IMG/VR virus record: IMGVR_UViG_3300037076_000126
Span: 1 to 23,672 of that record
Strand: one strand, 5' to 3'
Length of the DNA: 23,672 nucleotides
Origin: a virus
The notes under the pieces were generated by a model. The model did no database searches and was not told the DNA's origin. It saw nothing but the letters and a program-made list of their open reading frames with translations. The translations under genes were made by a program, and so were the position numbers. Position 1 is the first letter of the stretch. Every line of letters begins with the position of its first letter. Positions 3,480 through 22,971 of this stretch are shown here, piece by piece.

Positions 3480-4088
3480 TTAATCTCTAAATATGATTAG
3501 TCGTATATTCGCTTTACCTTCTCCGTAATATTGATAAACTTCTTCTTTAGTTTTAATCTCGGTAAATTGATTATTATTTTTCATATCAATTATACCACAC
3601 TTTAAATTTTTCGAGAATGCTTCTAAAAATAATTTCTCCCAATACCACTTTCCCTTGGGCGTATGAACTCCATCAGACATGACAAATTCATACTTTTTAA
3701 GTATATTATTAAATATCCAATCTCTTGCTAATCCACGAAAATTCCGACTATTCCAGATGCTATGATTAACAATTCCATTAGAATGATCTAATTTAATTTC
3801 AGAATATGAATGATATAAATGAATGGTCGGTTCATGTTCTTCCATTAAATTTATAAATGTGTTATCTTCTTCTATCTTTTGATATATCCTAAAAGTAAAA
3901 CTCCCATACTTATGATGTCCTATTAAATTACTGTCTTTTTCAATTTTAACTGCTTCACCAGAATTAGCAATCCAATCATCTAATGCAATTGTATAATCCC
4001 GATACATTATCGGAGATTCGGTTAGCCCATACGTTTCTAGCATATATGACTTATAATCGAAGTTATATGCGTCGAATTCTTCGCTCAT
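3480..4088 (-). CDS. GNAT-like acyltransferase-fold protein, paralogue of 9762-10364
   Basis: A protein of 202 aa related to the gene at 9762-10364. Both begin with a YDYKSY/FDYKSY element and share a block HSIWNSRNFRGLARDWIF, then VMSDGVHTPKGKWYWEKLF. The order (R-x-x-G-L-A helix, then a strand with SD-x5-G-x3-W) resembles the acetyl-CoA binding part of GNAT acetyltransferases, and phage-encoded GNAT-like proteins often carry an SD...Q/T...G...W segment. The canonical Q/R-x-x-G-x-G/A is only partly kept, so an active acetyltransferase is an inference. It is followed after three bases by another coupled gene, and its own stop precedes the operon promoter at 3445-3473. Confidence 0.5.
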   Translation of the reverse strand: MSEEFDAYNFDYKSYMLETYGLTESPIMYRDYTIALDDWIANSGEAVKIEKDSNLIGHHKYGSFTFRIYQKIEEDNTFINLMEEHEPTIHLYHSYSEIKLDHSNGIVNHSIWNSRNFRGLARDWIFNNILKKYEFVMSDGVHTPKGKWYWEKLFLEAFSKNLKCGIIDMKNNNQFTEIKTKEEVYQYYGEGKANIRLIIFRD

Positions 4089-6022: not shown

Positions 6023-6051
6023 ATTATATAATTATTTCAAGGAATTGTCAA
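6023..6051 (-). promoter_or_regulatory. Consensus sigma70 promoter giving a nearly leaderless mRNA
   Basis: Minus strand: TTGACA (6051-6046), 17-base spacer, TATAAT (6028-6023), a perfect match to both boxes. Transcription should start near 6016, three bases before the ATG at 6013. The -35 box lies inside the last codons of the endonuclease gene 6037-7353, so that gene was inserted or kept exactly against this promoter. Confidence 0.8.
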
Positions 6052-7353
6052 GTTATTTGATAATATTTCCGATATTTTCTTCATATCCCAATAAGGAATT
6101 CTTAATAATTTAATATTGTTATTTTTAGCATATTCATCCTTACGACGATCATGCTCTTTTGTTTTTAATAACTGGTCTTCTGTTGTTTTAGTTCCTCCAA
6201 AATACCCCTCACCATAATGCTGTTCCCCATCATACTCAATTAATAAATTCTGAGATGGAACGAAAAAATCGTATCTTAATAGTCTATTTCCAATTCCCAC
6301 TAGCCCATTAAATGTTTTCTGGCGTTGATATTCTAACATATTGATGTCTAAATAAACTCTGACTTTATGTTCTCCACTTGATAATTCGCAATATGGACAT
6401 CTACCATCATTTATATGCTCATATGGAATTTTTGAAAATGTTTTGTTGCATGTATTGCATATTATCTGAACTTGTGTATGTGCATTGATATAATTAACCA
6501 GAGAATAATTAAACAATTCTCCATATGTTGAATGTGCAATTTCAATCCATTTATGAGTAGTATATGGAACATTTCCAGCACATATTCCACATCCATGTCC
6601 TAGCAAATGTTGCATTGGCGTTTGTGGAAATTGTATATTACAAGTGCGGCATGTTATAATTACATGTGTGATTGCATTTGTATATTTCACAAATTCATAG
6701 CCATATAAGTCGCCATGTATGTGTTCAGCACGTTTAATAAAGTCAACTACGTTTGAGTGACAATTACCAGCACATTTTGAGCAGCCAATGCCTTGTAGAT
6801 GGTTAGATGCTCTTATATTGAATTCTCCATGTATAGGACAGATTACAATTCCGCTTGATTTTGAATCTGTATATTTAAATTTATGATAAGAATAGAAAAA
6901 GTTATGAATAATATTGGAACGAGTAATAAATTCTTCGATTGTCATTCGCCTGATATTTCCAACGTGTTCTACACTACATAATGGACACCCTTGACCACGA
7001 AGATGGTTTCCGGCCATTTGACTAAATACCGAATTATGAGAAGGACATATAATATCTATATGTGATTTAATATTTTCCCACTTGACTAAATCATATTTAT
7101 ATTTATTATTATGTATATTATTAGATTTAATTATAAATGTATCTAATGTATACGGCACATGATTAGAACACGCTGGACATCCAATGCCTTGCAGATGGTT
7201 AGATGCTCTTATATTGAATTCTCCGTGATATGGGCATATAACAATTCCTTTAGTATGCGAATCTACATAAATAAAATTGCCATAAGAATAGAAAAAGTTA
7301 TGTTCGATATTTGCTTTATCTATATATTCCGTCTGTGTTAATGGCTTACTCAT
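6037..7353 (-). CDS. Homing endonuclease with zinc-ribbon repeats and an EDxHD (Vsr-like) nuclease domain
   Basis: A 438-residue free-standing endonuclease. Residues about 36-325 hold five repeats, each with paired CxxC or CxxH sites around a pattern like ICPxHGEFNIRxxNHLxGxGCPxC, the DUF723-type DNA-binding zinc ribbon known from phage homing enzymes. Residues about 325-430 form a Vsr-like nuclease: Glu328 (SSGEHK), Asp362 (RYDFF), Glu373 and Asp375 (LIEYDGEQHY), His379 and Asp402, matching the EDxHD family. The protein ends KLLRIPYWDMKKISEIL, a tail also found as a remnant after the polymerase gene. It lies between a glycosyltransferase and a P-loop gene. A structured 5' region at 7357-7450 precedes the ATG, with no Shine-Dalgarno, which suggests translational control. 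Confidence 0.85.
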   Translation of the reverse strand: MSKPLTQTEYIDKANIEHNFFYSYGNFIYVDSHTKGIVICPYHGEFNIRASNHLQGIGCPACSNHVPYTLDTFIIKSNNIHNNKYKYDLVKWENIKSHIDIICPSHNSVFSQMAGNHLRGQGCPLCSVEHVGNIRRMTIEEFITRSNIIHNFFYSYHKFKYTDSKSSGIVICPIHGEFNIRASNHLQGIGCSKCAGNCHSNVVDFIKRAEHIHGDLYGYEFVKYTNAITHVIITCRTCNIQFPQTPMQHLLGHGCGICAGNVPYTTHKWIEIAHSTYGELFNYSLVNYINAHTQVQIICNTCNKTFSKIPYEHINDGRCPYCELSSGEHKVRVYLDINMLEYQRQKTFNGLVGIGNRLLRYDFFVPSQNLLIEYDGEQHYGEGYFGGTKTTEDQLLKTKEHDRRKDEYAKNNNIKLLRIPYWDMKKISEILSNNLTIP

Positions 7354-7356
7354 AAT

Positions 7357-7450
7357 CTGTCAGTGCCTTTTAATTTTAAATAGGAATACTACCTTAACCA
7401 TGAACTGCTTTGTTGGCACTGACAGTTGGTTGTAGTGGTAGTATTCCTAT
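7357..7450 (-). promoter_or_regulatory. Candidate H-type RNA pseudoknot in the leader of an endonuclease gene
   Basis: Two perfect inverted repeats are interleaved. Arm A, CTGTCAGTGCC (7357-7367), is complementary to GGCACTGACAG (7415-7425). Arm B, ATAGGAATACTACC (7380-7393), is complementary to GGTAGTATTCCTAT (7437-7450). The order A-B-A'-B' cannot form nested hairpins but is exactly the H-type pseudoknot order. In the minus-strand RNA the stems are 14 and 11 bp with loops of 11, 21 and 12 bases, the last being A/U only. The final arm ends three bases before the ATG of the endonuclease (7353), covering the ribosome-binding region. A near copy of part of arm A (TGTCAATGCC, 7471-7480) lies further upstream. 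No known riboswitch class was recognised. Confidence 0.7.
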
Positions 7451-7510
7451 AAATTGTTTCTTAGTTATAATGTCAATGCCTTATATTATACATATAAGCA
7501 AAGATAAGAA

Positions 7511-8845
7511 TTATTCAATCTTTTTTAAGGAAGGAAGTTGTATACGTTTTAATTTAGGAAGCACTATAGTCGATGCACGAGGAATCTCTGGTATATACTT
7601 GTCCAATAACTCAAATAGTCTTTCTTCCATTTTCTTTAGATTAAACTTTCCCCTATTCTCCATTCCTAATTTAATTGCTTTATCAATCCTTTCTTGAGAA
7701 TAGTTAAAGAAATAATCTTTCATTTTTTCCGATGCTTTAGCATAATCAACCTCGAACCATTTACTACCGGAAATGATCCATGAATTTACACTTTCTGGAT
7801 GAACATCTACCAACTTACCTTCGAAAAAGTCAGCGTATTTTTCATCCATAAAGTCTAGTTGACCAGAATGTTTTGGAAGCAGTGTCGGTTTTAATGCAAA
7901 TGTAGATGCTAATGAGGAACCGCCCCACGATTCCCCGAATGTGAATGATAAAAATACTTTTACCTTTTCACAAGAATGTAAATATACCATTTCCTTTTCA
8001 CTTAATTGGCCATAAAACAGGTAAATATTTGGGAGTTTAACATTACCACCCAATTGATTCTTAACCATGTTAGTAATCTCATTTAACTTATTGATACACT
8101 CGTGACGATCAACCGTTCCAACTAAAGGTCCATTAGTTTTCAATATTAAACATGGAGGATTATCAATTCCGGCAAATGTTTTGAGGAATGTTTCAATTAA
8201 TTTACCGGTATTTTTTCTATCACTATTCATATTACCACCCCACATACCACTATAGAAAAATGCAAAGGTTTCAGGAATTTTTGCTAATTCTTCATCAATA
8301 GAAGATACTGGCTCAATATTAGCAAATAATTTATCATCTTGTCCCCACATTAAAGTTTCAATTGGTTTATTTAAGACCAATTTTTCACTTGAACCATTAG
8401 GATTCTTTTTAAGATATTCTGTCTTAGTAGCAACTTCTTTATTAAATTCTGACATTAATATATTTAAATTCATATTATTGGAACCTTCGATGAATGTGGC
8501 AGGATACTGGGTAGTCTCTATACCCGCAGAAATTCCAATATTAACATTACCATTAGGTTTAAAGTCGCACGGTAAAGAAATCTGACACCACACGTCGGGT
8601 TTCTTATTTAAATTTTCTCTTAGAATTAATTGTATTAATTCCATTGTTTCTGGATCAGATGCTAACTCATTTATATCACGATTTGAGCAGCTTCCCCATT
8701 GATAAGGTATAAGTTTTAAATTCCAATCTTTCTTCTTACAATACTTGTTGATTATTTTTGCAATTTCTAATGAATATCGGCCATAGCCGCTTGAATTTAG
8801 AGCTGGAGATTGTAAAACTACTAATGGTTTGTTGTTATTTATCAT
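7511..8845 (-). CDS. Glycosyltransferase, GT-B fold (GT4-like)
   Basis: A full-length 444-residue GT-B enzyme. The N-domain starts VVLQSPALNSSGYGRYSLEIAK, with the Ser/Gly loop after the first strand. The C-domain starts near FAFFYSGMWGGNMNSDRKNTGKLIETF, where the Arg-Lys after the strand is in the usual diphosphate-binding place. The signature region is LSFTFGESWGGSSLASTFALKPTLLP (about residues 299-323), with Glu305 as the first acidic residue of the E-x7-E motif and the second replaced. The C-terminus is a basic tail (LKRIQLPSLKKIE). The gene is flanked on both sides by homing endonuclease genes, with only two bases between its ATG and the stop of 8848-9579. Confidence 0.75.
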   Translation of the reverse strand: MINNNKPLVVLQSPALNSSGYGRYSLEIAKIINKYCKKKDWNLKLIPYQWGSCSNRDINELASDPETMELIQLILRENLNKKPDVWCQISLPCDFKPNGNVNIGISAGIETTQYPATFIEGSNNMNLNILMSEFNKEVATKTEYLKKNPNGSSEKLVLNKPIETLMWGQDDKLFANIEPVSSIDEELAKIPETFAFFYSGMWGGNMNSDRKNTGKLIETFLKTFAGIDNPPCLILKTNGPLVGTVDRHECINKLNEITNMVKNQLGGNVKLPNIYLFYGQLSEKEMVYLHSCEKVKVFLSFTFGESWGGSSLASTFALKPTLLPKHSGQLDFMDEKYADFFEGKLVDVHPESVNSWIISGSKWFEVDYAKASEKMKDYFFNYSQERIDKAIKLGMENRGKFNLKKMEERLFELLDKYIPEIPRASTIVLPKLKRIQLPSLKKIE

Positions 8846-8847
8846 AT

Positions 8848-9579
8848 TTATTTTATTTTTAATTCTTTTTCTGTTATTACTTTAAATTTATATCCGTTGA
8901 TTTTACAAAATTTTTCGGCGGCAACTATCTTCGTATATGCATTTTTATAATTCTTTTGTATGCTTTTCATAGGTTTGACCTCTTCTATAAGAGTATCACC
9001 AATCAAAAAATCTGGTATATAATGTCGCAACTTTCCTTCGTCATCGTTGTATGGGATTGCAATTTTATGTCGCTTTGTCCACATAATTCCAAGTTCATCC
9101 AATTGATTCATACGTATCAATTCATATGAACTAGCATAATATTCTGATTTTCCCGATAATTTAGAAGTATAATATCCAGTTTTATAGAATTTAGACCCAC
9201 ACAATCCAAGACTTGCTTTGTGGAGATTTCCGCACATAGGAGAGCAAAATCTCTTGGTTTCTTTTTTCTGAGCATAAAAACTTAAATTACACCATTCACA
9301 TTCTTTCATAGTTCCAGTTCTGGGTCTTGGTGGGTTTGTGTGTTGCCATTTAAACTTACATGTATTTGAGCAGAAGTGATAGTTTGACCTATTTTTATCC
9401 GATTTACATTTTAATAGTTGTAAATTACACCCATGACACATAACAATGTCCATATTTTTATGGATATATTCAGTATAACATTTTTTACAGCAAAATTTTC
9501 CATATCCTTGGAGAACGATATATTTTTTAATATAAAATATATTTTCGCAATTTTTACATGATCGTTTTATCTTTGCCAT
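8848..9579 (-). CDS. Homing endonuclease-like protein, Cys-rich N-domain plus PD-(D/E)xK nuclease
   Basis: A 243-residue protein. Residues 1-120 carry at least four CxxC-type pairs (CKNC, CCKKC, CHGC, CEWC, FCSPMC), expected to bind zinc and DNA. The second half is a PD-(D/E)xK nuclease: Glu153 in SSYELIRMNQLDELGI, then YIPDFLIGDTLIEEVKP with Pro-Asp at 189-190 and Glu200-Val-Lys202, similar to TnsA-like and phage mobile endonucleases. It ends VITEKELK, shared with its paralogue at 12595-13347. It follows a ribbon-helix-helix gene by one base and precedes a glycosyltransferase by two bases, a typical site for an intronless mobile endonuclease. Confidence 0.75.
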   Translation of the reverse strand: MAKIKRSCKNCENIFYIKKYIVLQGYGKFCCKKCYTEYIHKNMDIVMCHGCNLQLLKCKSDKNRSNYHFCSNTCKFKWQHTNPPRPRTGTMKECEWCNLSFYAQKKETKRFCSPMCGNLHKASLGLCGSKFYKTGYYTSKLSGKSEYYASSYELIRMNQLDELGIMWTKRHKIAIPYNDDEGKLRHYIPDFLIGDTLIEEVKPMKSIQKNYKNAYTKIVAAEKFCKINGYKFKVITEKELKIK

Positions 9580-12594: not shown

Positions 12595-13347
12595 TTATTT
12601 TAACTCTTTCTCCGTTATTATTCTATATTGATAATTATTTAATTTACAATATTCAATGGCGGCATCATATTTCAAATTGTTATTATCAACTTTACTCTTT
12701 ACTAAATTACTCGGTTTAACTTCTTCAATTATATTACTACCAACTAGAAAATCAGGAACGTAATTTCTCGTATTCCCAACTGGATCAACGTAGGGAATTC
12801 TAATTCCATGCTTCTTCGTCCATTTAATATTTAAATTATCCAATTGTTTCATTCTTTTTTCTTCATATGATGATCCAAACCATTCATCGTTACCTGTTAC
12901 AGTTGAATGATGCCATCCCTGCTTATAGAAATTACGTTTAGGATTGCATTTTCCTTCAGCTATTAATTTAGAACGAGAAAGGGACATATTAGGATTATAT
13001 TTTCCTCGCTTAAATTGTCCGGCACATTGTATCGAACAACATTTCTGAGTTACATGGCACTTTTTAGTATAAAACACTGTATTACAAAAGGCACATGTTT
13101 TATATTCTCCTAATTGTTGAGTCTTTCTCAAGTATTCTTTCCGACATTGTTTAGAGCAGTATTTATTAGCATCTATTAATAGTTGACTGTGCTGAGTTGA
13201 TGTGAACTCTTTATTACAGCATAAACAATTCTTTGTTCGGTTGAATCTGTTATATGGCAATTTTAATGATTTGTGATAACAACTATGAGAACAATATTTT
13301 CTGGATGATTTTATATCCATGTTACATGTTTTACATTTATTATTCAC
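12595..13347 (-). CDS. Homing endonuclease-like protein, paralogue of 8848-9579
   Basis: A 250-residue protein with the same plan as 8848-9579. The Cys-rich half has pairs CKTC, CLCC, CSKQC, CAFC, CCSIQC. The nuclease half has SSYEEKRMKQLDNLNIKWTK, then YVPDFLVGSNIIEEVKP with Pro-Asp at 198-199 and Glu209-Val-Lys211, and ends RIITEKELK. The two proteins match closely in the nuclease half and diverge in the zinc half, as expected for enzymes that have changed target. The start is a GTG that overlaps the TGA of the glycosyltransferase fragment upstream (GTGA), so translation is coupled to it. Unlike its paralogue it has no ribbon-helix-helix partner. Confidence 0.75.
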   Translation of the reverse strand: MNNKCKTCNMDIKSSRKYCSHSCYHKSLKLPYNRFNRTKNCLCCNKEFTSTQHSQLLIDANKYCSKQCRKEYLRKTQQLGEYKTCAFCNTVFYTKKCHVTQKCCSIQCAGQFKRGKYNPNMSLSRSKLIAEGKCNPKRNFYKQGWHHSTVTGNDEWFGSSYEEKRMKQLDNLNIKWTKKHGIRIPYVDPVGNTRNYVPDFLVGSNIIEEVKPSNLVKSKVDNNNLKYDAAIEYCKLNNYQYRIITEKELK

Positions 13348-14333
13348 ATTGCATCAATTCTGGTTTGAATTTTACTTCTGTCAATTTTAGGTATTTCGAA
13401 TCCTAGTTTACCTCTTGTCATTGTATTGCCGACATGATCTTTAACGGAATAAACTCCAAATGCTTTAGGCTTAACCCAATTATTAAATACAAATTCCATA
13501 CAGTTAACAAACTGTTCTCCCATGTTTTTTGCATTGATTCCACCAGCCCCCAGTGCCCATTCCCTACCTTCCTTGCCATATTGTTTACGAGTTTTATGAG
13601 GAGTCATATACCAATACATAAATCCCTCGGCAAAATCCTCAAACTTTGCAATTTCGTCGAATATATAAGGCGTAGGAATACTTCCTTGAACCATTCTTGT
13701 TGCTGGCCATACAGGATATGCCCAATTACCACATTTCTTATATTTTCCATCGCTATTACTTCCCCAATCACCGGTAAATTTTAATGGATTTCCAGTATCA
13801 TCTACAAAGCCCATTTGATCTTGAAGCCCCCCCGTTACTGTTGCAATTATAGGAGTTCCGGCCATAACACTCTCAGCCGTAGAAAGTCCGAATCCTTCTG
13901 AACTAGAAGCACATACAACAACGTCGGCACAATTATATAACAGGTTTAAATCGGTGGGAGAAAGCTTTCCCGGTGAGAATAATATATTATAATTAGGGCA
14001 TAGAGATTCTTTTACAGCAACTAAATTAGTTCCGGCATCAAGTGCAATCTCGCAATGTAGAACTAATAAAATTCTAGATGCTTCTTCCGGAGTTAAATTA
14101 TCACAAAATTGTCGGTAGGCTAATATTATATTACTTGTTCTTTTTCGTTGAATATTTCGAGAATTATATAATAATATAAAATTATATTCTTTACCTTGCG
14201 TTAATTTTTTACGAAATTCAATAAAGGCAGGATCAGTATGCGCTATTGGCTTAAATGTCGTTGATGATATACCATGAGGAACGGTATGAATTAGTTTCTT
14301 ATTTACTATTTGATTATTAAGTTTGAATGCCAT
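13344..14333 (-). CDS. Glycosyltransferase GT4, C-terminal (nucleotide-sugar) domain as a separate protein
   Basis: A 329-residue protein that starts at the point where an intact GT4 enzyme would cross from its first to its second Rossmann domain: LIHTVPHGISSTTFKPI (residues 14-30). Next come FILLYNSRNIQRKR (donor phosphate-binding Arg/Lys) and ASSSEGFGLSTAESVMAGTP, with the E-x7-E pair Glu146 and Glu154. The N-terminal acceptor domain is missing here but is encoded just upstream at 14347-14922. The two ORFs are 13 bases apart and in different frames, so this is a split glycosyltransferase whose halves probably assemble. A homing endonuclease follows with a four-base overlap. Confidence 0.75.
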   Translation of the reverse strand: MAFKLNNQIVNKKLIHTVPHGISSTTFKPIAHTDPAFIEFRKKLTQGKEYNFILLYNSRNIQRKRTSNIILAYRQFCDNLTPEEASRILLVLHCEIALDAGTNLVAVKESLCPNYNILFSPGKLSPTDLNLLYNCADVVVCASSSEGFGLSTAESVMAGTPIIATVTGGLQDQMGFVDDTGNPLKFTGDWGSNSDGKYKKCGNWAYPVWPATRMVQGSIPTPYIFDEIAKFEDFAEGFMYWYMTPHKTRKQYGKEGREWALGAGGINAKNMGEQFVNCMEFVFNNWVKPKAFGVYSVKDHVGNTMTRGKLGFEIPKIDRSKIQTRIDAM

Positions 14334-14346
14334 ATTATTTATTTAG

Positions 14347-14922
14347 TTATTTGGTTGTTATTAAATTTCCATCTTGGTCAAATTCTCCTTCTAATGATAT
14401 ACAATTTAAAGGATCACATACATGTTTCGCTACGTTATTTGATTGTTGCGATATAGCAAGGAGCGCATCGACGGAATCATAACTGGGACGATTCCATTGC
14501 GGCATCATTTGTGAATCCCAAATATGCCAATACACTAGTGGTATTCCCATTGCATGAATTTGTGCCTCAATTGCAAAAAGCCACATATACTGCCTCGGAT
14601 CTGTAATTGCCGCTATTGCGTCTGGTTTCTCAATTTCGATTATTTGAAATAAAATATTGGCGTCACCATAACCATTAACCGGATATAATTTACAATAAGC
14701 ATCTTTAATATTTGCTTCTTCGTTGAAGTGTTGCGACATATCACAAATCTTACCTAATTCCGGGTGCCCATTCGCCCCTCCCAATAAAGTATAGTCATAT
14801 TTATGCACAGTTTGCTTAACCATTTCCTTTGTTGCGACACTTACGCCTGAAAAAAATCTTATATCATCGGATATAAAAAGTATCTTTTTTTTCTTATTGT
14901 TGTTTGTATTATTGTTATTCAT
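14347..14922 (-). CDS. Glycosyltransferase GT4, N-terminal (acceptor) domain as a separate protein
   Basis: A 191-residue protein. After an Asn/Lys-rich start (MNNNNTNNNKKKK) it reads ILFISDDIRFFSGVSVATKEMV, the first strand and Gly/Ser loop of a GT-B N-domain, then PDAIAAITDPRQYMWLF, IPLVYWHIWDSQMMPQW and VDALLAISQQSNNVAKHV. The last is the segment that in whole GT4 enzymes stands 15-30 residues before the VPHGI motif beginning the C-domain, found in the next ORF. It ends with a short tail (DQDGNLITTK) and TAA. It is preceded by an endonuclease gene one base away. Confidence 0.7.
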   Translation of the reverse strand: MNNNNTNNNKKKKILFISDDIRFFSGVSVATKEMVKQTVHKYDYTLLGGANGHPELGKICDMSQHFNEEANIKDAYCKLYPVNGYGDANILFQIIEIEKPDAIAAITDPRQYMWLFAIEAQIHAMGIPLVYWHIWDSQMMPQWNRPSYDSVDALLAISQQSNNVAKHVCDPLNCISLEGEFDQDGNLITTK

Positions 14923-14923
14923 A

Positions 14924-16033
14924 TTATTTATTGATTAATTCTCCTTTTCTGTTAAATATCATTTTTCTATAGTTATATCCGGCATCGATAACGGCGGCTT
15001 CCTTTAAATTTAGATATTTTGTGGTTTTATTTGTCCAATCCGACTTAACCTCGACTATTAAATTGTCTTTTTTGATATATGCATCTGGATAATATCGACG
15101 AGATATTCCGTCTGGGGAGGTGTAACGTAATATGGGCATATCCTTATAAGACGTTGTTATATCATGTTCCGAATAAGTTTTAAGTAATTCATCTAAGCCA
15201 AATGGTTCATATCCTTGGACTTTAATGATCTTACCGGATGGCAAAGTATAAGATTTTCGTTGATGTGCTGCTTTTTGTTGTTTTAATATAATTTCTGGAC
15301 AGTGCATCGGACTTGATACTCCGTAGTTTTTAAGGCATGTTTGTCTTGATTTCTCTTTAACTTCTTCTGTCTGATTGGCGTTCTCCACTCCATATTTTCG
15401 CAAACACGTTTGTCTTGATTTTTCTTTAATTTCCGGAACTTGAAACCCATTGCTTACTCCATATTTAAGAAACATTGTATTTTTATATGCGTCAGTCATA
15501 TGCTTTACGTTTTCTTCAGATTCCCATCTTTTTGACGTAAGTCTGGACATATTTTTAAGCCTGTCATCTGTTTCCTTAGTCTGTCCTTTATTCCATATGA
15601 ATCTATTTTTATGTATGTTAGCAATTCTAACGTCAGTTTCTTTAGTTAGGCCGGTGTTCCATTTTGGATCGTGTCTGCATATATAGGTATGATACCCAAT
15701 GTCTAAATTTTTAAATGACGGGGTTCTTCCGCATCCACATTTACAAGTTGGTATATTTCCCAACAATACAAATTCGTTGTAGTAGTTATGTGAAGTCATA
15801 TTATGACATTTATCAAGATGACATGAAAATCTAGTTGCATTTTTAATTATTCTATTGCAAATTTTACATTGATGTGGGGTTTGTTTTGGTGTCCTTGTTC
15901 CGATAGGAGCGGCTGGAAATTGCTTTATATACTCTGCAAGTGTGATATCATGAACACGTTTCAAATGAGAACCATTAACTCTCGTTTTCATATTCAAGCC
16001 ACAAATTTCACATTTTATAAAAATATAATTCAT
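14924..16033 (-). CDS. Homing endonuclease with C2H2/C4 fingers, NUMOD-like repeats and PD-(D/E)xK domain
   Basis: A 369-residue protein. Residues 1-80 contain two zinc fingers (CEICGLNMKTRVNGSHLKRVH and CKICNRIIKNATRFSCHLDKC) and residues 97-120 a further Cys/His cluster. About 185-245 is a three-fold repeat of LKYGVxN...EIKEKSRQTC, typical DNA-recognition repeats of phage mobile endonucleases. The C-terminal domain has GYEPFGLDELL (Glu276), YYPDAYIKKDNLIVEVKSDW (Pro-Asp 316-317, Glu328-Val-Lys330), a PD-(D/E)xK nuclease. Its ATG overlaps the TGA of a ribbon-helix-helix gene. It sits directly before the N-half of the split glycosyltransferase. Confidence 0.8.
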   Translation of the reverse strand: MNYIFIKCEICGLNMKTRVNGSHLKRVHDITLAEYIKQFPAAPIGTRTPKQTPHQCKICNRIIKNATRFSCHLDKCHNMTSHNYYNEFVLLGNIPTCKCGCGRTPSFKNLDIGYHTYICRHDPKWNTGLTKETDVRIANIHKNRFIWNKGQTKETDDRLKNMSRLTSKRWESEENVKHMTDAYKNTMFLKYGVSNGFQVPEIKEKSRQTCLRKYGVENANQTEEVKEKSRQTCLKNYGVSSPMHCPEIILKQQKAAHQRKSYTLPSGKIIKVQGYEPFGLDELLKTYSEHDITTSYKDMPILRYTSPDGISRRYYPDAYIKKDNLIVEVKSDWTNKTTKYLNLKEAAVIDAGYNYRKMIFNRKGELINK

Positions 16034-16312: not shown

Positions 16313-16318
16313 GTGCTG

Positions 16319-17200
16319 ATGTCTGAACCTATAAAGAAAAAACAAATATCATTTAGTCAATTTTCGACCTATTTCGCATGTGGTTATAAATGGTTTCGTG
16401 ATTATGTTAAGAAGGATAAGAAGTTTGAGGATAATTTAAATATGAGTATGGGTTCTGCCGTGCATTTTGCCCTTCAAACATATTTGACTCTATTGTATAA
16501 TGAATCAGAAGCCAAAGCAGAGGCACTTGATATTGTCGATATTTTCATAAAATCATTTCGTGGAGAAATTACGAAGAAGGGAATTAAATCTTCCGAAGAA
16601 GAAATCGACGAGTTCATAACCGATGGAAGTGCTATTCTAAGAGAATTTATCCGGCCTGAAAATAGAAAGAGATATTTTCCCCGTGAAAAGTATGAACTAC
16701 TTGGAATTGAAATGTCATTAAATGAACCAATTTTTAATAACCTGAATATTGTAGGGTTTTTGGATTTAGTTTTAAAAGAGAAAATGACGGGAAATATTAA
16801 AATTGTTGATTTTAAAACCTCAACGAGAGGATGGTCTGCATCAGAGCAGGAAGATTTTACAAAATTAGCTCAGTTGAGACTCTATAAGGCTCTTTATAGT
16901 AAGAAGCATAATCTTCCGCTGAATAAAATTCAAGTTGAATTCTTTATATTAAAGAGAAAACTATATGATGAATCTAAATGTAAATTTCCCCAAACTAGAT
17001 TAAAGATATTTACTCCGCAATCATATAAAAATGATATTGAGGAAACATTGGTCGAGATCAGTAAATTCATAAAAGCATGTTTCACGGAAGACGGTGAATT
17101 TATTCCTAATAAGGAACATGAAAAACTTCCCTCCACAAAAGCATGTAAATATTGCCAATATGCCAAAGACGGAACCTGTGATAAGAAGAAAAATAAATAA
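16319..17200 (+). CDS. Cas4/RecB-like nuclease with an iron-sulfur cluster motif
   Basis: A 293-residue PD-(D/E)xK exonuclease-type protein, probably acting in phage DNA replication or recombination. Motifs in order: SFSQFSTYFACGYKW (Cys21), MGSAVHFAL (His49), LGIEMSLN (Glu131), IVGFLDLVL (Asp149), KIVDFKTS (Asp164, Lys166) and QLRLYKAL (Gln185, Tyr189), which is the full RecB/Cas4 series. At the C-terminus CKYCQYAKDGTC (276, 279, 287) together with Cys21 gives the four cysteines that bind a 4Fe-4S cluster in AddB and Cas4. No cas genes or CRISPR array are present, so it is not an adaptation protein here. I chose the ATG over a GTG six bases upstream. It is the first gene of the replication block. 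Confidence 0.85.
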   Translation: MSEPIKKKQISFSQFSTYFACGYKWFRDYVKKDKKFEDNLNMSMGSAVHFALQTYLTLLYNESEAKAEALDIVDIFIKSFRGEITKKGIKSSEEEIDEFITDGSAILREFIRPENRKRYFPREKYELLGIEMSLNEPIFNNLNIVGFLDLVLKEKMTGNIKIVDFKTSTRGWSASEQEDFTKLAQLRLYKALYSKKHNLPLNKIQVEFFILKRKLYDESKCKFPQTRLKIFTPQSYKNDIEETLVEISKFIKACFTEDGEFIPNKEHEKLPSTKACKYCQYAKDGTCDKKKNK

Positions 17201-17202
17201 TT

Positions 17203-17388
17203 ATGATTGATTTCGCCAAAGCTAATACAAAAGAATTTCGGGAATTTTTAAAAAATGAAATCGATGCCGATATATTTTCTCAAATAGCAAATAAAACAAA
17301 AAATAAACATATTAAGAATAGATTAGTCGAATGTGCTAAATCGCTGATTGATAATAATAAATCTATTTTAGAGATTGAAAATAACTAA
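17203..17388 (+). CDS. Small Lys/Asn-rich protein of unknown function
   Basis: A 61-residue, mostly helical protein (MIDFAKANTKEFREFLKNEI, then FSQIANKTKNKHIKNRLVEC). It follows the nuclease gene by two bases and precedes the next by three, so it is cotranscribed. No family recognised; no membrane or signal segment. Confidence 0.55.
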   Translation: MIDFAKANTKEFREFLKNEIDADIFSQIANKTKNKHIKNRLVECAKSLIDNNKSILEIENN

Positions 17389-17391
17389 ATT

Positions 17392-17598
17392 ATGAAGAAA
17401 AAACAAAAAATTAAAAAGATAAATAAATTCCCATCCGTTAGAATAACGAAATCATGGGTAAATTCCTGTGATCATTGTATTCATCAAGAAGCCGGAGGTC
17501 ATTATTGTAATTTTAGAGGTGAACCCATGAAAAATATGGATATAAAAAGATGTGGTGCCTTCGAAGATAAACTTGATAGTAATAATTTGAAGTATTAA
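17392..17598 (+). CDS. Small Cys-containing protein, probable zinc knuckle
   Basis: A 68-residue protein with a basic start (KKKQKIKKINK) and four cysteines in SCDHC (26, 29), YCNF (39) and RCGAF (54), spaced like a small zinc-binding domain. Phage genomes often carry such one-domain proteins, some binding nucleic acid. The role is unknown. It lies in the run of closely spaced small genes leading to the polymerase. Confidence 0.6.
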   Translation: MKKKQKIKKINKFPSVRITKSWVNSCDHCIHQEAGGHYCNFRGEPMKNMDIKRCGAFEDKLDSNNLKY

Positions 17599-17601
17599 TA
17601 T

Positions 17602-17808
17602 ATGGACGAAATGCGATATAATATTCATGGGGTTATTGTGACAGTGGAACCGAATGGGGAAGTGTGGTTAAAATTTAAAAGCTTAAAAGCAACAGATGGT
17701 AGCTTAGTTAAGAGATGTCGACAAATTGTAGATTATATGATTTCCGAGGCGTTTATCACGGATGACCAAGTAGAGTATATTAATATCGACGGAGTCACAA
17801 TTCGATAA
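17602..17808 (+). CDS. Small protein of unknown function
   Basis: A 68-residue protein: YNIHGVIVTVEPNGEVWLKF (two beta strands), then a helix VKRCRQIVDYMISEAFI and a last strand VEYINIDGVTI. The alternating pattern suggests a compact alpha/beta fold, but I do not recognise it. It is three bases after its neighbour and is the last gene before an internal promoter. Confidence 0.55.
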   Translation: MDEMRYNIHGVIVTVEPNGEVWLKFKSLKATDGSLVKRCRQIVDYMISEAFITDDQVEYINIDGVTIR

Positions 17809-17815
17809 TATTTAA

Positions 17816-17843
17816 TTGACAATTGAAATTAAACTGATATAAT
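17816..17843 (+). promoter_or_regulatory. Consensus extended -10 sigma70 promoter
   Basis: TTGACA (17816-17821), 16-base spacer, TATAAT (17838-17843), with TG one base before the -10 box (extended -10). This is the best promoter in the window. Transcription should begin near 17850 and the next ATG is at 17852, so the transcript that runs into the DNA polymerase would be practically leaderless. Confidence 0.85.
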
Positions 17844-17851
17844 GCGGTAAT

Positions 17852-18235
17852 ATGTTATCATCAGAATTCATACAATCATTAAATGAAGACGAGATGAGTC
17901 TATTACTATATTTCGTAAATGTAGTTGGTCGACCTTTATCTCACAATATCCCATTTGAAGTTAACGATTTGAAATTTTTTAGAAAAGATATTTTAACGAA
18001 GAAATTATTAGATTCGTTTAATAAATTGACACCGGACGGACATCCAATATTTGTTTCTCTCATGGAAAAGTTTGGTGTTAAAGTTGAAATTAAACAGGAA
18101 GAACCTAAGAAAATCGAAGAACCAGTATTACCAATAACAAGTTCAGTTGAACAGATTGTTTCTATTCAACCGGAAGTTTCTCAATCGGCAGAAACTCCTA
18201 AAACTGAAACAACTGGCTCGGCAGAAATAAAATAA
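17852..18235 (+). CDS. Unknown protein with a disordered acidic tail
   Basis: A 127-residue protein. The first 80 residues (EFIQSLNEDEMSLLLYFVNV, then FFRKDILTKKLLDSFNKL) are predicted to be helical. From about residue 85 it changes to a Glu/Pro/Ser/Thr-rich tail (EEPKKIEEPVLPITSS and onward) with no fixed structure. It is the first gene after the strong promoter at 17816-17843 and lies two genes before the polymerase; a replication accessory role is possible but not shown. Confidence 0.6.
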   Translation: MLSSEFIQSLNEDEMSLLLYFVNVVGRPLSHNIPFEVNDLKFFRKDILTKKLLDSFNKLTPDGHPIFVSLMEKFGVKVEIKQEEPKKIEEPVLPITSSVEQIVSIQPEVSQSAETPKTETTGSAEIK

Positions 18236-18237
18236 TT

Positions 18238-18555
18238 ATGAAGACAAAATATTTAATAGTAACCATGCCTGACGATTCTCAATGGAGAATTTCGGCAAAT
18301 TATATAGCAGCACAGAGAGCAGAATATTATGCTACAGGAGATTTTGAAAAGGATAAAACTATTCCATATACAACGCTTTTTCAAGAAGAAATGGAATATG
18401 CTTTAAAAAATGATGATGAACTTGTTGATTGGGCATCTAATAGCATGAATTGGTCACATGTAAAAGATATCGCTACAGAATTGCCTAGTAAAAAGAAAGA
18501 ATTGGATTTTGAAGATAAATGGCCTAATGCCAATAAGGAAATTGTTGAATTGTAA
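18238..18555 (+). CDS. Unknown small protein upstream of the DNA polymerase
   Basis: A 105-residue soluble protein: KYLIVTMPDDSQWRISANYI, AAQRAEYYATGDF, then an acidic helix FQEEMEYALKNDDELVDWA. The beginning looks like a beta hairpin followed by helices. I do not recognise the family. It starts two bases after the previous stop and ends three bases before the polymerase, so it is translated from the same mRNA. Confidence 0.6.
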   Translation: MKTKYLIVTMPDDSQWRISANYIAAQRAEYYATGDFEKDKTIPYTTLFQEEMEYALKNDDELVDWASNSMNWSHVKDIATELPSKKKELDFEDKWPNANKEIVEL

Positions 18556-18558
18556 TCT

Positions 18559-20298
18559 ATGTTTAAAGCAATTTTTAATGATAAATTAAACGGAATCGTG
18601 CATGTGCTTGATGATAGTGATGATCGCTGGCAACAATACCCATCATCTGATTTCCATTATGCTTATAGAAAATCTACTACGGGAACTTTTACATCGATTT
18701 ATGGTGATAAACTTGAAAAAATAACTTCTTTTGATGAAACAGATACCGGCTTATTTGAATCCGATTTAAATATAGAAATGAAGGTATTATTAGATTTGTA
18801 TAAGGGTAATGAAGAAGTCAGTAAAGGCCATAGAATTGTTATTTACGATATTGAAACGTCAACTCTTGGTGGTTTCCCGAATGTAATGCTCGGCGATAAA
18901 GAAATCACAGCCATTGCATTATATGATTATGCAACCGATAAATATTATTCCCTTATTCTTGATAAAGAAAATAAAGTCCAAAATAAAATTGAGGGTAATC
19001 AAACTTTAAGAGCCTTTGAAACGGAAGTTGGATTATTATCTAATTTTCTAACCCTCTGGAGAGAATTAAATCCTACTATAATTTCCGGGTGGAATATTTG
19101 GAACTTCGACGATCCGTATATTTATAATCGAATTAAAGTAGTTCTCGGTAAGAAAGCAACTTATAAATTATCACCTCTAGGAATCGTTTACCAAAATCAA
19201 TTTAATAAAAAATTAGTTATTGGTGGAGTATCTTCTTTGGATTATATCGAATTGTATAAGAAATGGTGCCCCGTGATGAAATCATCATATTCATTAGCCA
19301 GCGTTTCCAATGATGAAGAATTAGAACATCGAAAATTAACTTATAAAGGAAATTTGGATGATTTGTATCGTGATAATATAGAACAGTTTATAAATTACAA
19401 TTTAGTTGACTGTAAAATTATTGTTGACATCGAAAAAAAGTATAAATTCATCGAGCTTGCGATTTCTATTTGTCACAAGGGACATGTGAATTACGAAAGT
19501 TTTCGTATGAGTTCTAGGTGGATTGATGGTGCTATTTTAGATTATCTTCATACTGAGATGAATGTCATCGCCCCAAATAAACCAGCCGAAGGACGCCAAA
19601 ATTATGAAGACATGATTAAATCGGATGAAGAAGGATTTGAAGGTGCGTATGTAAAGGTGCCCCAAGTTGGAATTCATAATGATATAAGCGCACTGGATGT
19701 GCAGTCATTGTATCCGTCGATTATACGCACATTAAATATTAGTCCAGAAACTAAAATTGGCAATATAAAAAACTGGGATTGGGATGAATATAACAATGGT
19801 AATTTAAAAGAAATTCAACTGAATGAAATGGTTTATACTATGGATGAATTTAAGCGTATGATTTCAAATCACACCATGTCAATATCGGGGTGTGGAACGT
19901 GTTATACATTATCAAAGATAGGAGTAATTCCTGCTATATTAACTCAATGGTTTGAAGAACGATTAAAATATAAGAAACTTCAGCACGATTATAATATATC
20001 AGGGGACAAAATTAAAGAAGAATATTATAATTTAATCCAAAATAGGACTAAGGTGTTCCTCAATACATGTTATGGAATTTTGGGCCTACCTATCTTTCGT
20101 TTCTACGACCTCGACAACGCAAAATCTACCACGATTTCTGGGCAAATTATCATTAAAAAATCAGAAGCATTTATCAATGCAAAGTTCCAAGAAAAGTTGG
20201 GTAAGAAATATAAAGTTACATATGAAGACGGGACAAATGAAGTAGTATATAAAAACCAACTCGATCTGAAAGAACGAGGAATAATTATAAACCTATAG
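18559..20298 (+). CDS. 43: DNA polymerase family B, N-terminal part (exonuclease, fingers, motifs A and B)
   Basis: First 579 residues of a T4 gp43-like replicative polymerase. The 3'-5' exonuclease has Exo I YDIETS (Asp97, Glu99), Exo II SGWNIWNFDD (Asn179, Asp184) and Exo III YNLVDC (Tyr280, Asp284). Polymerase motif A is SALDVQSLYPSII (Asp380), motif B is NRTKVFLNTCYGILG (Lys498, Asn502, Tyr505, Gly506). The second catalytic aspartate pair (motif C) is missing because the ORF stops at TAG 20296-20298. It continues, in another frame and from a new ATG at 20309, with the residues leading to YCDTD. The last ~30 residues (KYKVTYEDGTNEVVYKNQ and onward) form a beta-like insertion that seems to be cut in the middle. 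This piece alone cannot polymerise; it must pair with, or be joined to, the rest. Confidence 0.9.
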   Translation: MFKAIFNDKLNGIVHVLDDSDDRWQQYPSSDFHYAYRKSTTGTFTSIYGDKLEKITSFDETDTGLFESDLNIEMKVLLDLYKGNEEVSKGHRIVIYDIETSTLGGFPNVMLGDKEITAIALYDYATDKYYSLILDKENKVQNKIEGNQTLRAFETEVGLLSNFLTLWRELNPTIISGWNIWNFDDPYIYNRIKVVLGKKATYKLSPLGIVYQNQFNKKLVIGGVSSLDYIELYKKWCPVMKSSYSLASVSNDEELEHRKLTYKGNLDDLYRDNIEQFINYNLVDCKIIVDIEKKYKFIELAISICHKGHVNYESFRMSSRWIDGAILDYLHTEMNVIAPNKPAEGRQNYEDMIKSDEEGFEGAYVKVPQVGIHNDISALDVQSLYPSIIRTLNISPETKIGNIKNWDWDEYNNGNLKEIQLNEMVYTMDEFKRMISNHTMSISGCGTCYTLSKIGVIPAILTQWFEERLKYKKLQHDYNISGDKIKEEYYNLIQNRTKVFLNTCYGILGLPIFRFYDLDNAKSTTISGQIIIKKSEAFINAKFQEKLGKKYKVTYEDGTNEVVYKNQLDLKERGIIINL

Positions 20299-20308
20299 AC
20301 TACACAAT

Positions 20309-20731
20309 ATGAAGAAAATAATTAAAATTGAAGAAGTAGAACACGATGATTATGTTCAATACTGCGATACGGATAGTGTGACCGGAGATTGTTTGATTTC
20401 GATCAACGGAATTGAGTCTAAGATAGAAGATATATGGAACACTATAAATACAACAAAAGAAATCGTTGATATTTCGGGTCGATATTACAAATTTCCCACA
20501 TCTACAACATTACCATATTATGATGAGACTAATTCGGTAGTTAAAATGGGTGGTGTGAAGTATATAGAGCGTCACAAAACACGTAAAAAAGTCTTTCTAT
20601 TAAAAACATCTCTTGGAAATTCAATTAAAGTAACGGAAGACCATTCTATAATGATAGTTGATAAAAACGGGAAACTTATTAAAAAGAAGCCAAAAGAATT
20701 AAATAAAGGAGATAAATTGATTTCTATTTGA
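20309..20731 (+). CDS. DNA polymerase middle fragment fused to the N-half of a split intein
   Basis: A 140-residue ORF in two parts. Residues 1-22 end DDYVQYCDTD, the start of polymerase motif C. From Ser23 the sequence is an intein N-half: block A SVTGDCLISING, then a long beta-rich stretch, and block B GNSIKVTEDHSIMI (Thr109, His112). It ends GDKLISI-stop after 118 intein residues, the normal place for a split. Ser1 followed by VTGD is what is seen in archaeal polymerase inteins inserted at the same DTD|S site. The matching C-half is at 21866. The ATG follows the previous stop by ten bases with no Shine-Dalgarno (a GAGGA at 20276-20280 is too far), so reinitiation after the TAG is likely. 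Confidence 0.9.
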   Translation: MKKIIKIEEVEHDDYVQYCDTDSVTGDCLISINGIESKIEDIWNTINTTKEIVDISGRYYKFPTSTTLPYYDETNSVVKMGGVKYIERHKTRKKVFLLKTSLGNSIKVTEDHSIMIVDKNGKLIKKKPKELNKGDKLISI

Positions 20732-20733
20732 TA

Positions 20734-20767
20734 TTTATATAGATACAACACTATGTATCTATATGAA
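20734..20767 (+). promoter_or_regulatory. Hairpin that contains the start codon of the endonuclease gene
   Basis: ATATAGATACA (20737-20747) is perfectly complementary to TGTATCTATAT (20754-20764) across a six-base loop; three more pairs (one G-U) extend the stem to 14 bp, 20734-20747 with 20754-20767. The ATG of the endonuclease (20763-20765) is in the 3' arm, so the initiation region would be closed in a long transcript. There is no U-run, so it is not an intrinsic terminator. Occlusion of an endonuclease start by a hairpin is known for T4 I-TevI. Confidence 0.7.
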
Positions 20768-21890
20768 AACAAAACAACTTAAATTAAAACGTAATCGATT
20801 ACAATATTGTGAGAAACTATTATCTAAAGGATTGACTGAGCGTGAAATAATACCATTACTCAATACTTTCTCGGTAAGAAATAAGAACTATTGGTTAGAG
20901 CGAGATTATTCAATTGAAGAATCGGTCATGATGGCAAGGTCTAGAACGCCAGGAACAATTGAATATTATAAGATATATAAAAATCTATCGGAAGAACAGT
21001 CGAAAAAGGCGGTAATCGAGTATCAGTCTAATAAAGTAAATACATTGGAAAATTTTATTAGGAAACACGGACAAGAAGAAGGAGATAAAAGATTCAAATC
21101 ATATTGCGAAAAGCAAGCGTATTCGAATACTCTAGAATATATGATCAAAAAATATGGAGAAGAAGCCGGAACTAATAAATATTACACAGCCAATAAAAAT
21201 AGAGCAGTTACATTAGAAAACTGTATTAAAAAGCATGGCAATGAACTCGGAGCACAAATTTACAGTAACTATGTTAAGAAGCAGCGGACGAATGGGAAAT
21301 CATTAGAATATTTTATACAAAAACTAGGAAAAGATGCAGGAACATGTAAATATATAACTTTAAATAAACAAAAGGCACAGACATATAATAATTACTTGAT
21401 TAGAAATAATGGAGATGTAGAAAAGGCTGCCGCAGCATTTGATACTTATTGTAAAAACAGATACAATTCAGTTACCACTAAACGTGGAGTTTCTGCTTCA
21501 TCTCAAGATTTCTTTGGAAAATTACATATGGAATTAATTAAGCTTGGTATAGAAAAGATATTCTATGCATCATATAATCAAGAATGGATAATTAATATTA
21601 TAGGTAAGCGAGTAGTATATTTGGATTTCTTTGTTAAGAGTCTAGGTAAAGTTATAGAATATAACGGGGATTATTATCATGCAAATCCGACCAAATTTAA
21701 ATCGACAGATAAAATAAATTGCTATGGAAAGGAGCGTCTGGTAGAATTGGTGTGGAGTGATGAGAAATCACGCTTGGATGATATACGAAGTGTCCCATAT
21801 ATAAAAGATATACTTGTAATATGGGAAGGTGAAGTAAATGATAATGAACATGAGGTTATAAAAAAATGCATACAATTCCTTTTAAAATAG
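20763..21890 (+). CDS. EDxHD (Vsr-like) homing endonuclease between the two split-intein halves
   Basis: A 375-residue free-standing protein. About residues 94-207 hold four tandem repeats of roughly 28 aa with the pattern LExxIxKxGxExGxxxYxxxxxK, probably reading DNA. Residues about 247-355 form a Vsr-like nuclease: Asp288 (VVYLDFF), Glu299 (VIEYNGDYYH), Asp303, His306 and Asp333 (WSDEKSR). This endonuclease class was first described inside fractured genes with split inteins. Its product should cut a polymerase gene lacking the insert and so spread the cassette. The ORF ends 25 bases inside the following intein-C/polymerase ORF (different frame), and its start codon sits in a strong hairpin, so expression is probably limited and coupled. 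Confidence 0.85.
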   Translation: MKTKQLKLKRNRLQYCEKLLSKGLTEREIIPLLNTFSVRNKNYWLERDYSIEESVMMARSRTPGTIEYYKIYKNLSEEQSKKAVIEYQSNKVNTLENFIRKHGQEEGDKRFKSYCEKQAYSNTLEYMIKKYGEEAGTNKYYTANKNRAVTLENCIKKHGNELGAQIYSNYVKKQRTNGKSLEYFIQKLGKDAGTCKYITLNKQKAQTYNNYLIRNNGDVEKAAAAFDTYCKNRYNSVTTKRGVSASSQDFFGKLHMELIKLGIEKIFYASYNQEWIINIIGKRVVYLDFFVKSLGKVIEYNGDYYHANPTKFKSTDKINCYGKERLVELVWSDEKSRLDDIRSVPYIKDILVIWEGEVNDNEHEVIKKCIQFLLK

Positions 21891-22885
21891 ACGAACTAGA
21901 AGAAATTATAGAATTGGGCGAACTGGAAGAATATTTTTATGATATTGGGATGGAAGACACCCCACATACATTCTTTGCTAATGATATTTTAGTTCACAAC
22001 AGTAATTTTTTCTCCATTACGCCCCTATTAAAATGCAATTCTATTTCGGAAGAAGGGAAACAGGAATATTGCATTGACACTACAAAAGAGTTGGCGGCAG
22101 GAATTAATAAGTTGTTCGAGTATATGATGCCGAAGGTATTCAATGTTCCAGCTAGTAAAAATAAGATTAAAATTGTGCCAGATATCATAGCACAAAGAGC
22201 AATATGGTTTTCTAAGAAGCGTTATGCATTATTAACTACTTTCAACTTTGAAACGGGGAAACCTATCAAAGATAAATTGGGAAATGTAGGTAAAATTAAA
22301 ATTAAAGGTGTAGATTCAGTGCGTTCCTCATATGCGCCGAGATTTAGAACATTGCTCACAGAATTAATAGAACAACTGTTAAGGGGTAAAGACACTAGTC
22401 AAATTGACCAAGAAATAATGGAATTTGAAGAAAACATAAATAATCTTGCGCCGGTTGAGTTGTGTAAAACATCATCAATTAAATTTATTAGTATGAAAGG
22501 TGATAAGAATTATAGCAAAGGACGAGAACCATTTGGAACAATAAAAGGATCGCCAGTTACAGCAAAAAGTGGCAATTTCCATAATGATTTATTAAAGATA
22601 TGGAAATTGGATAAGACATATGAGATGATTAAACATGGTGATAAGTGTAAATGGGTGTATTTGATGCCGAATCCATATAATATTGATTCGGTTGCATTTA
22701 GGGGAGATCAATTGGATTCTGAAAAATTGATGGAATTTATTTCAGAATATATAGATAAACAAAAGATTTATACTAAAGAATTAAAAACCAAATTAATTGA
22801 TATATATGCCGCAATTAATAGGAATTTCCCTAATCGTGGGTCTGAATATGCGGCCAAAATATTTAATTTTAATGAAGAGTGGTAA
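21866..22885 (+). CDS. C-half of the split intein fused to the DNA polymerase C-terminal part
   Basis: Residues 1-45 are an intein C-half ending in block F/G: EYFYDIGMEDTPHTFFANDILVHN, with the penultimate His44 and the cyclising Asn45, then Ser46 as the +1 nucleophile. From Ser46 the chain is the rest of a family B polymerase: SNFFSITPLLK completes motif C (ligated YCDTD-SNFF), then FSKKRYALL (Lys-x-Tyr, palm), IKGVDSVRSSYAP and the thumb up to AAKIFNFNEEW. Protein splicing would release a 163-residue mini-intein. Polymerase residues total 579 + 22 + 294 = 895, close to T4 gp43 (898). The start has GAGG ten bases upstream, inside the endonuclease gene that it overlaps. Confidence 0.9.
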   Translation: MHTIPFKIDELEEIIELGELEEYFYDIGMEDTPHTFFANDILVHNSNFFSITPLLKCNSISEEGKQEYCIDTTKELAAGINKLFEYMMPKVFNVPASKNKIKIVPDIIAQRAIWFSKKRYALLTTFNFETGKPIKDKLGNVGKIKIKGVDSVRSSYAPRFRTLLTELIEQLLRGKDTSQIDQEIMEFEENINNLAPVELCKTSSIKFISMKGDKNYSKGREPFGTIKGSPVTAKSGNFHNDLLKIWKLDKTYEMIKHGDKCKWVYLMPNPYNIDSVAFRGDQLDSEKLMEFISEYIDKQKIYTKELKTKLIDIYAAINRNFPNRGSEYAAKIFNFNEEW

Positions 22886-22971
22886 GAATAAATAATATTG
22901 ACTTATTACGAATTCCGTATTATGATATGGGAAGAATAGCGGAAATATTGAAAGAAAAATTAAAATTATGA
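22885..22971 (+). pseudogene. Remnant of a homing endonuclease C-terminus
   Basis: Reading the frame that ends at TGA 22969-22971 gives RINNIDLLRIPYYDM, then GRIAEILKEKLKL. This matches the end of the endonuclease at 6037-7353 (NNNIKLLRIPYWDM, then KKISEIL) at most positions. There is no start codon or nuclease core; the polymerase stop is just upstream. It is therefore the tail of a lost EDxHD/DUF723-type endonuclease that once lay between the polymerase and the next gene. Its TGA still overlaps the ATG of that gene (ATGA). Confidence 0.7.

What the first reader, a model, noticed from the sequence alone, without database searches (positions are those of the whole stretch)
20309..22885. Fractured DNA polymerase gene rejoined by a split intein at the catalytic DTD|S, with a homing endonuclease in the gap
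The sequence shows polymerase motif C interrupted right after YCDTD by an intein N-half (Ser1, block A, TEDH block B) ending in a stop. A separate endonuclease gene follows, then an ORF starting with an intein C-half (VHN) followed by Ser and the remaining polymerase. Active polymerase can form only by trans-splicing of two proteins. Fractured genes with split inteins and EDxHD endonucleases are known from metagenomic phage sequences (helicase, reductase and others). Here the essential replicase is held at its active site, at the same position used by archaeal polymerase inteins. The short halves (118 + 45 aa) are the sizes of fast split inteins.
Basis: partly seen in the sequence, partly recalled or inferred. 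Interest (0 to 1): 0.95.

Follow-up and report, generated by a model that had tools for sequence, protein, structure and literature searches.

The report
Phage DNA polymerase gene broken twice
A phage's main DNA-copying enzyme is encoded in three separate genes: two are predicted to be stitched together by a self-splicing protein, as already known from other phages, and the third probably only docks, possibly through the remains of an older splicing element.

Summary
A T4-type PolB gene is cut after YCDTD by an N-intein half (118 aa, Ser1, TEDH). A free-standing HEG follows, then an ORF starting with the C-intein half (45 aa, VHN|S) and the polymerase rest. The novelty claim does not hold: fractured PolB genes with split inteins at DTD|S and the same endonuclease family are published or annotated in Aeromonas, Campylobacter, Tenacibaculum and Pseudomonas phages. 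I found 38 such loci among 74 IMG/VR relatives. Aes123 PolB1, the closest solved structure, is proven to trans-splice.

ORF 20309-20731 carries only 22 polymerase residues; exonuclease, palm and fingers lie in a separate gene (18559-20298). That break, between motifs B and C, has a 32-aa tail and a 12-aa head that uninterrupted relatives lack. Two other phages (L160, L120/L121) are broken at the same spot with similar tails and heads, and megaphage LR756508 with a similar tail. Their tails resemble the second lobe of PolB N-inteins without catalytic His and Ser1. Best reading: three genes, one trans-splicing event and one non-covalent join give one polymerase. Whether the join is a decayed split intein kept as a dock is the open, interesting part.

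The parts
18559..20298 (+). Polymerase piece 1 (579 aa): exonuclease, palm with motif A, fingers with motif B
   Evidence: PF00136 and PF03104, phrog_262 E=2e-113; AlphaFold model pLDDT 83.7, best PDB match RB69 gp43
20200..20295 (+). Tail of piece 1, 32 aa (GKKYKVTYEDGTNEVVYKNQLDLKERGIIINL), absent from uninterrupted relatives; predicted beta-hairpin at low confidence
   Evidence: similar to tails of L120 and L160
20296..20308 (+). First break: TAG stop of piece 1, then 10 nt, then ATG of piece 2 in another frame
20309..20344 (+). Head of piece 2, 12 aa (MKKIIKIEEVEH), similar to the head MKIKKIIKNENVEI of L160
   Evidence: strand in AlphaFold model
20345..20374 (+). N-extein DDYVQYCDTD: polymerase motif C strand up to the catalytic DTD
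   Evidence: alignment with L083 and L160
20375..20731 (+). N-intein, 118 aa from Ser1, with stop; TEDH (N3) and ERH (NX) motifs
20734..20767 (+). Hairpin (14-bp stem) whose 3' arm contains the start codon of the endonuclease gene; analogous hairpins in relatives
   Evidence: -15 kcal/mol, z=-5.5; relatives
20763..21890 (+). Vsr-like (EDxHD-type) free-standing homing endonuclease, 375 aa; D288, E299, D303, H306 invariant among 18 relatives
   Evidence: phrog_22677; relatives annotated VSR endonuclease; alignment
21866..22000 (+). C-intein, 45 aa, ending VHN; overlaps the endonuclease ORF by 25 nt
   Evidence: TIGR01443
22001..22885 (+). Polymerase piece 3 (C-extein, 294 aa from Ser+1): rest of palm and thumb
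   Evidence: phrog_262 E=5.5e-28; 43% identical to L083

Best explanation
A T4/RB69-type family B DNA polymerase of a tailed phage is encoded in three genes. Genes 2 and 3 carry the halves of a Ser1/Ser+1 class 1 split intein at DTD|S. After translation the halves associate and trans-splice, giving a 316-aa chain (22 aa with motif C plus 294 aa of palm and thumb). The gap between the intein genes holds a Vsr-like homing endonuclease that presumably spreads the element and has its own start-codon hairpin. Gene 1 (579 aa) is not spliced. It joins the spliced chain non-covalently, probably helped by its 32-aa tail and the 12-aa head of gene 2, to form the active polymerase. Shown by sequence: the three genes, the intein motifs and site, the HEG family, conservation of the polymerase, and recurrence of the first break in other phages. 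Inferred: splicing, non-covalent assembly, mobility, and control by the hairpin.
For: Intein models and structure match; all intein key residues present, including the NX [R/K]H motif of Ser1 inteins. Aes123, CP21 and LCGC14 PolB split inteins trans-splice or were characterised for it. Same layout in 38 of 74 IMG/VR loci. The polymerase is conserved across all three pieces, 49% identity. L160 and L120/L121 have the first break at the same junctions with a gene in between, so no frameshift can bridge it there. Head similarity to L160 (P=0.002) and tail similarity to L120 (P=0.001). Precedent for active polymerase from two unspliced chains: phage 25 gp43A/43B (PMC2988022).
Against: No protein data. 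Tail and head similarities of the window to the other cases are short and modest, and not significant for every pair. The break at 20298/20309 is known from one contig only, and an indel there cannot be excluded.
Confidence: 0.75

Rival explanations
1. The upstream break at 20298/20309 is a sequencing or assembly indel, or a programmed +1 frameshift. Pieces 1 and 2 are then one polypeptide with an inserted loop of about 45 aa, and only the intein fracture is real.
For: The gap is only 10 nt and a one-base shift near 20290 would join the frames. One contig only.
Against: L160 and L120/L121 are broken at the same junctions with other genes between, and LR756508 too. The ATG of piece 2 aligns with the ATG of the L160 head. 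Lack of a Shine-Dalgarno site is normal for this phage. Adjacent two-ORF enzymes are real in this lineage: the glycosyltransferase at 13344-14922 is split with a 13-nt gap here and a 10-nt gap in Mel-JY01.
Confidence: 0.15
2. The tail and head of the first break are not intein-derived: they are ordinary loop extensions, or an unrelated beta-rich docking element, that arose when the gene was split.
For: Pfam, PHROGs, NCBIfam and PDB profiles do not recognise the tails. The window's own tail has only 3.4 bits to the N-intein HMM, beaten by 105 of about 5,000 shuffles. L041 is broken nearby without such a tail.
Against: The profile of the three complete tails hits only PolB N-inteins among 20,123 ORFs at E<=0.1 (32 of 32), in register with their second lobe at the ORF end; hhalign probability 94%.
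Confidence: 0.5
3. The locus is a decaying polymerase: the gene is broken and the phage uses another polymerase.
For: The contig is a 23.7-kb fragment, so a second polymerase elsewhere cannot be excluded.
Against: All pieces lack internal stops. Exonuclease and motif A, B and C residues are kept, and the whole is 49% identical to an intact relative. The intein catalytic residues are intact.
Confidence: 0.06

Closest known systems
Aes123/Aes508 PolB1 split intein locus of Aeromonas phages (engineered as the CL/CLm inteins; PDB 9hth)
   Same: PolB in three coding pieces; split Ser1 intein at DTD|S; VSR-type endonuclease between the halves
   Different: Its first break is between motifs A and B, with a Seg endonuclease in the gap, and an annotated group I intron lies in 43B-1. 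The window breaks between B and C with no gene between; inteins about 30% identical
CP21 PolB1 and other phage/metagenome PolB split inteins (PMC12707363)
   Same: Split Ser1 PolB intein; CP21 also has the same HEG family
   Different: Sequence only about 35% identical in the N-half
MIJ3/PA5oct PolB (PMC6892783)
   Same: Split intein in PolB with an endonuclease gene between
   Different: Endonuclease in the gap annotated HNH; piece 1 is continuous up to the intein
Phage 25/44RR gp43A + gp43B split polymerase (PMC2988022)
   Same: PolB encoded as separate chains that assemble without splicing
   Different: In the related phage Aes508 the 43A/43B break is between motifs A and B; here it is 22 codons before the intein
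Fractured genes of Dassa et al. 2009 (cited; paper not held)
   Same: Essential enzyme broken by a split intein with a Vsr-like endonuclease between
   Different: Here with an additional, non-spliced break

Membership tests
Class 1 Ser1 split intein, PolB DTD|S allele | Ser1 directly after DTD, and HN followed by Ser+1 | tested here: met
Class 1 Ser1 split intein, PolB DTD|S allele | Block B/N3 TxxH and NX [R/K]H motifs | tested here: met
   TEDH and ERH, both His conserved in all 30 aligned sequences; NX defined in PMC10189870
Class 1 Ser1 split intein, PolB DTD|S allele | Hint fold of the N-half | tested here: met
   AlphaFold pLDDT 85.5; 9hth TM 0.70
Class 1 Ser1 split intein, PolB DTD|S allele | Protein trans-splicing | not testable with these tools
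   needs co-expression
Fractured gene (split intein plus free-standing endonuclease) | Conserved enzyme broken by split intein halves, endonuclease ORF between them | tested here: met
Vsr-like (EDxHD) homing endonuclease | Family homology and conserved catalytic D, E, D, H | tested here: met
   phrog_22677, relatives annotated VSR, invariant D288, E299, D303, H306
Vsr-like (EDxHD) homing endonuclease | Match to a solved Vsr/EDxHD structure by sequence | tested here: not met
   phmmer against PDB, nothing significant; a weak test because the family is divergent
Vsr-like (EDxHD) homing endonuclease | Site-specific cleavage and homing | not testable with these tools
   needs an assay
gp43A/gp43B split polymerase of Aeromonas phages | Break at the same place (between motifs A and B) | tested here: not met
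   window break is between motifs B and C
Decayed split intein (for the first break) | Tail homologous to an N-intein lobe, without catalytic residues | tested here: inconclusive
   For. Against. The window's own tail is too short to decide

The most novel reading that the evidence does not exclude
The break at 20298/20309 and its counterparts in L160, L120 and LR756508 are relics of a second, older split intein that lost its first lobe, Ser1, catalytic His and C-terminal Asn. What remains (second N-lobe as tail, first C-intein strand as head) no longer splices but serves as a docking clasp that holds a permanently split replicative polymerase together. A selfish splicing element has thus become a protein-assembly part, next to a still active split intein in the same enzyme.
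Probability: 0.3. Interest if true: 0.75.

Novelty: new variant of a known kind. Interest (0 to 1): 0.45.

Why it matters
The intein part adds a divergent natural split intein to the PolB set now used in protein engineering, where cysteine-independent ones are few. The other part makes testable whether a dead split intein can survive as a docking module. If so, it would show one route by which single genes become lasting multi-subunit enzymes, and a replicative polymerase built by one splice and one clasp.

Tried and rejected
Direct viral-contig scans with piece 1, or with the C-intein/polymerase ORF, found nothing; a profile with Mel-JY01 and L010 worked. A genome-contig scan with the tail profile and a viral scan with the LR756508 tail found no further tails. 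A group I intron in the first gap was rejected: the gap is only 10 nt. An alternative code reading TAG through was rejected: it adds only a few residues before TAA. A PDB search for the HEG gave nothing significant. The absent Shine-Dalgarno site was considered as evidence against the start at 20309 and rejected, since other starts of this phage lack one too.

Full report
What is there. The window is a 23.7-kb linear virus record. Four ORFs on the + strand together encode a T4/RB69-type family B DNA polymerase and an endonuclease: 18559-20298 (579 aa), 20309-20731 (140 aa), 20763-21890 (375 aa) and 21866-22885 (339 aa). The second starts with 22 polymerase-chain residues ending YCDTD and continues with a 118-aa N-intein. 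The fourth starts with a 45-aa C-intein ending VHN, followed by Ser and 294 polymerase residues in all. Intein models hit both halves, and polymerase families hit the flanks in the right order. Joined in a script, the three polymerase pieces align end to end with the uninterrupted 856-aa polymerase of contig L083, 421 identities over 855 aligned positions.

The intein. The window has the features of Ser1/Ser+1 class 1 inteins: Ser1, TEDH, HN|S and the NX [R/K]H motif described for cysteine-independent inteins. The closest solved structure by sequence (E=1e-9) and by fold of the AlphaFold model (TM 0.70) is 9hth, the Aes123 PolB1 split intein, which sits at the same DTD junction and is known to trans-splice. 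Related PolB split inteins from CP21 and marine metagenomes were published in 2025, and MIJ3 in 2019.

The endonuclease. It belongs to phrog_22677 and to the family annotated as VSR endonuclease in Aeromonas phages and PTm1. D288, E299, D303 and H306 are invariant among 18 relatives. Its start codon lies in the 3' arm of a strong hairpin (z=-5.5). Many relatives have analogous hairpins around the same start, several with AGGAG in the loop. This resembles, from general knowledge, the hairpin control of T4 homing endonucleases.

How common it is. Of 74 IMG/VR loci with this N-intein, 38 have split halves with this HEG family in the locus, 22 are split without that HEG, 4 are contiguous, and in 10 no C-half was found within the locus. 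The described arrangement is therefore a known and widespread kind, and the window is a divergent member of it.

The ORF at 20309 is not the polymerase N-part; motifs A and B and the exonuclease are in the gene before it. Of 80 close relatives of piece 1 found with a profile, nearly all are uninterrupted here (for example ...NKELKTDDIDYVQYVDTDS). The exceptions are L160 and L120/L121; the latter two are identical over 8,584 bases and count as one phage. In L160, piece 1 ends ...NKELGYEVIVKMEDNSTRTYYSNNFISIMRNGILTKVKASELLETDDIV; a glycosyltransferase-like ORF (judged by eye; no Pfam hit) follows; then the rest starts MKIKKIIKNENVEIDHVQYVDTDS. In L120 a NUMOD3 endonuclease lies between. Megaphage LR756508 (L164) has a similar tail, three kilobases of other genes, and then a start MKTKKIKNIPESK. 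In the window the junctions are the same (LG | tail; head | DDYVQY), with a shorter tail and no gene between. Similarity of the window's tail to L120's (P=0.001) and of its head to L160's (P=0.002) is modest but significant by shuffling. Its tail does not align significantly with L164's, nor its head with those of L120 and L164. The tail HMM prefers the window's tail over all but 7 of about 4,700 scored shuffles. Position, start codon and sequence together make a true split more likely than a sequencing error, though for this single contig an indel cannot be excluded.

What the second break may be. A profile of the three complete tails searched against 20,123 ORFs from all loci finds, besides the tails themselves, 32 hits at E<=0.1, and all 32 are PolB N-inteins, matched mostly at their C-terminal lobe just before the ORF end. 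Hhalign gives 94%. The catalytic TxxH and the first lobe with Ser1 are missing. This suggests a decayed split intein. Against it, curated libraries and the PDB do not see the similarity, the ORF set is enriched for N-inteins, the idea was formed on the same sequences, and the window's own tail is too short to tell. I rate the relic reading at 0.3. Some non-covalent join of piece 1 to the spliced chain is needed in any case, unless the break is an artefact.

Mechanism. Shown by sequence: three genes, a split intein with intact catalytic residues, a HEG, a conserved polymerase. Inferred: translation of three polymerase chains, trans-splicing of chains 2 and 3 into a 316-aa chain carrying motif C, then docking with the 579-aa chain. 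Precedents are Aes123 for splicing and phage 25 gp43A/43B for assembly without splicing. Aes508 and PTm1 also have PolB in three pieces, but their first break is between motifs A and B.

Verdict. Observation confirmed; interpretation right about the intein but overstated on novelty and incomplete on anatomy. New variant of a known kind.

Noticed in passing
window 13344-14922 (- strand): A glycosyltransferase is encoded as two adjacent ORFs with a 13-nt gap. Microcystis phage Mel-JY01 has the same two-ORF form with a 10-nt gap, while Flavobacterium phage immuto has one fused gene.
   Followed up: partly
window 6037-7353, 8848-9579, 12595-13347, 14924-16033 (- strand): Four more ORFs that look like endonucleases or zinc-finger/PD-(D/E)XK proteins by eye (14924-16033 hits DUF7487, E=1e-48), next to glycosyltransferases: a heavy load of possible mobile endonucleases in 24 kb.
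   Followed up: no
L120 about 3839-3860, L121 about 8782-8803: Motif C carries an extra TAAT (GACACG-TAAT-GGATTCC), which stops the head peptide after DT and opens a new ATG (MDSVFVSC). Either motif C is split between two chains or this is a null allele. The two contigs are one phage.
   Followed up: partly
L164 (LR756508) 6411-8288: Intein junction reads YTD|...VHN|TDSVF, so the intein appears to sit two residues upstream of DTD|S; the polymerase halves are about 3 kb apart with unrelated genes between.
   Followed up: partly
L041 2197-6341: PolB broken just before motif C by a free-standing zinc-finger/Vsr-like endonuclease ORF without tail homology, followed by a contiguous DTD|S intein.
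   Followed up: partly
window gene starts 16313-22968: The genes lack Shine-Dalgarno sites and several have an AATT-ATG leader, which hints at a Bacteroidota-type host.
   Followed up: no
window 20734-20767 and IMG/VR loci such as L053, L059: Hairpins that hide the start codon of the endonuclease recur across the family, often with AGGAG in the loop and an ATAAATA upstream that resembles a T4 late promoter.
   Followed up: partly
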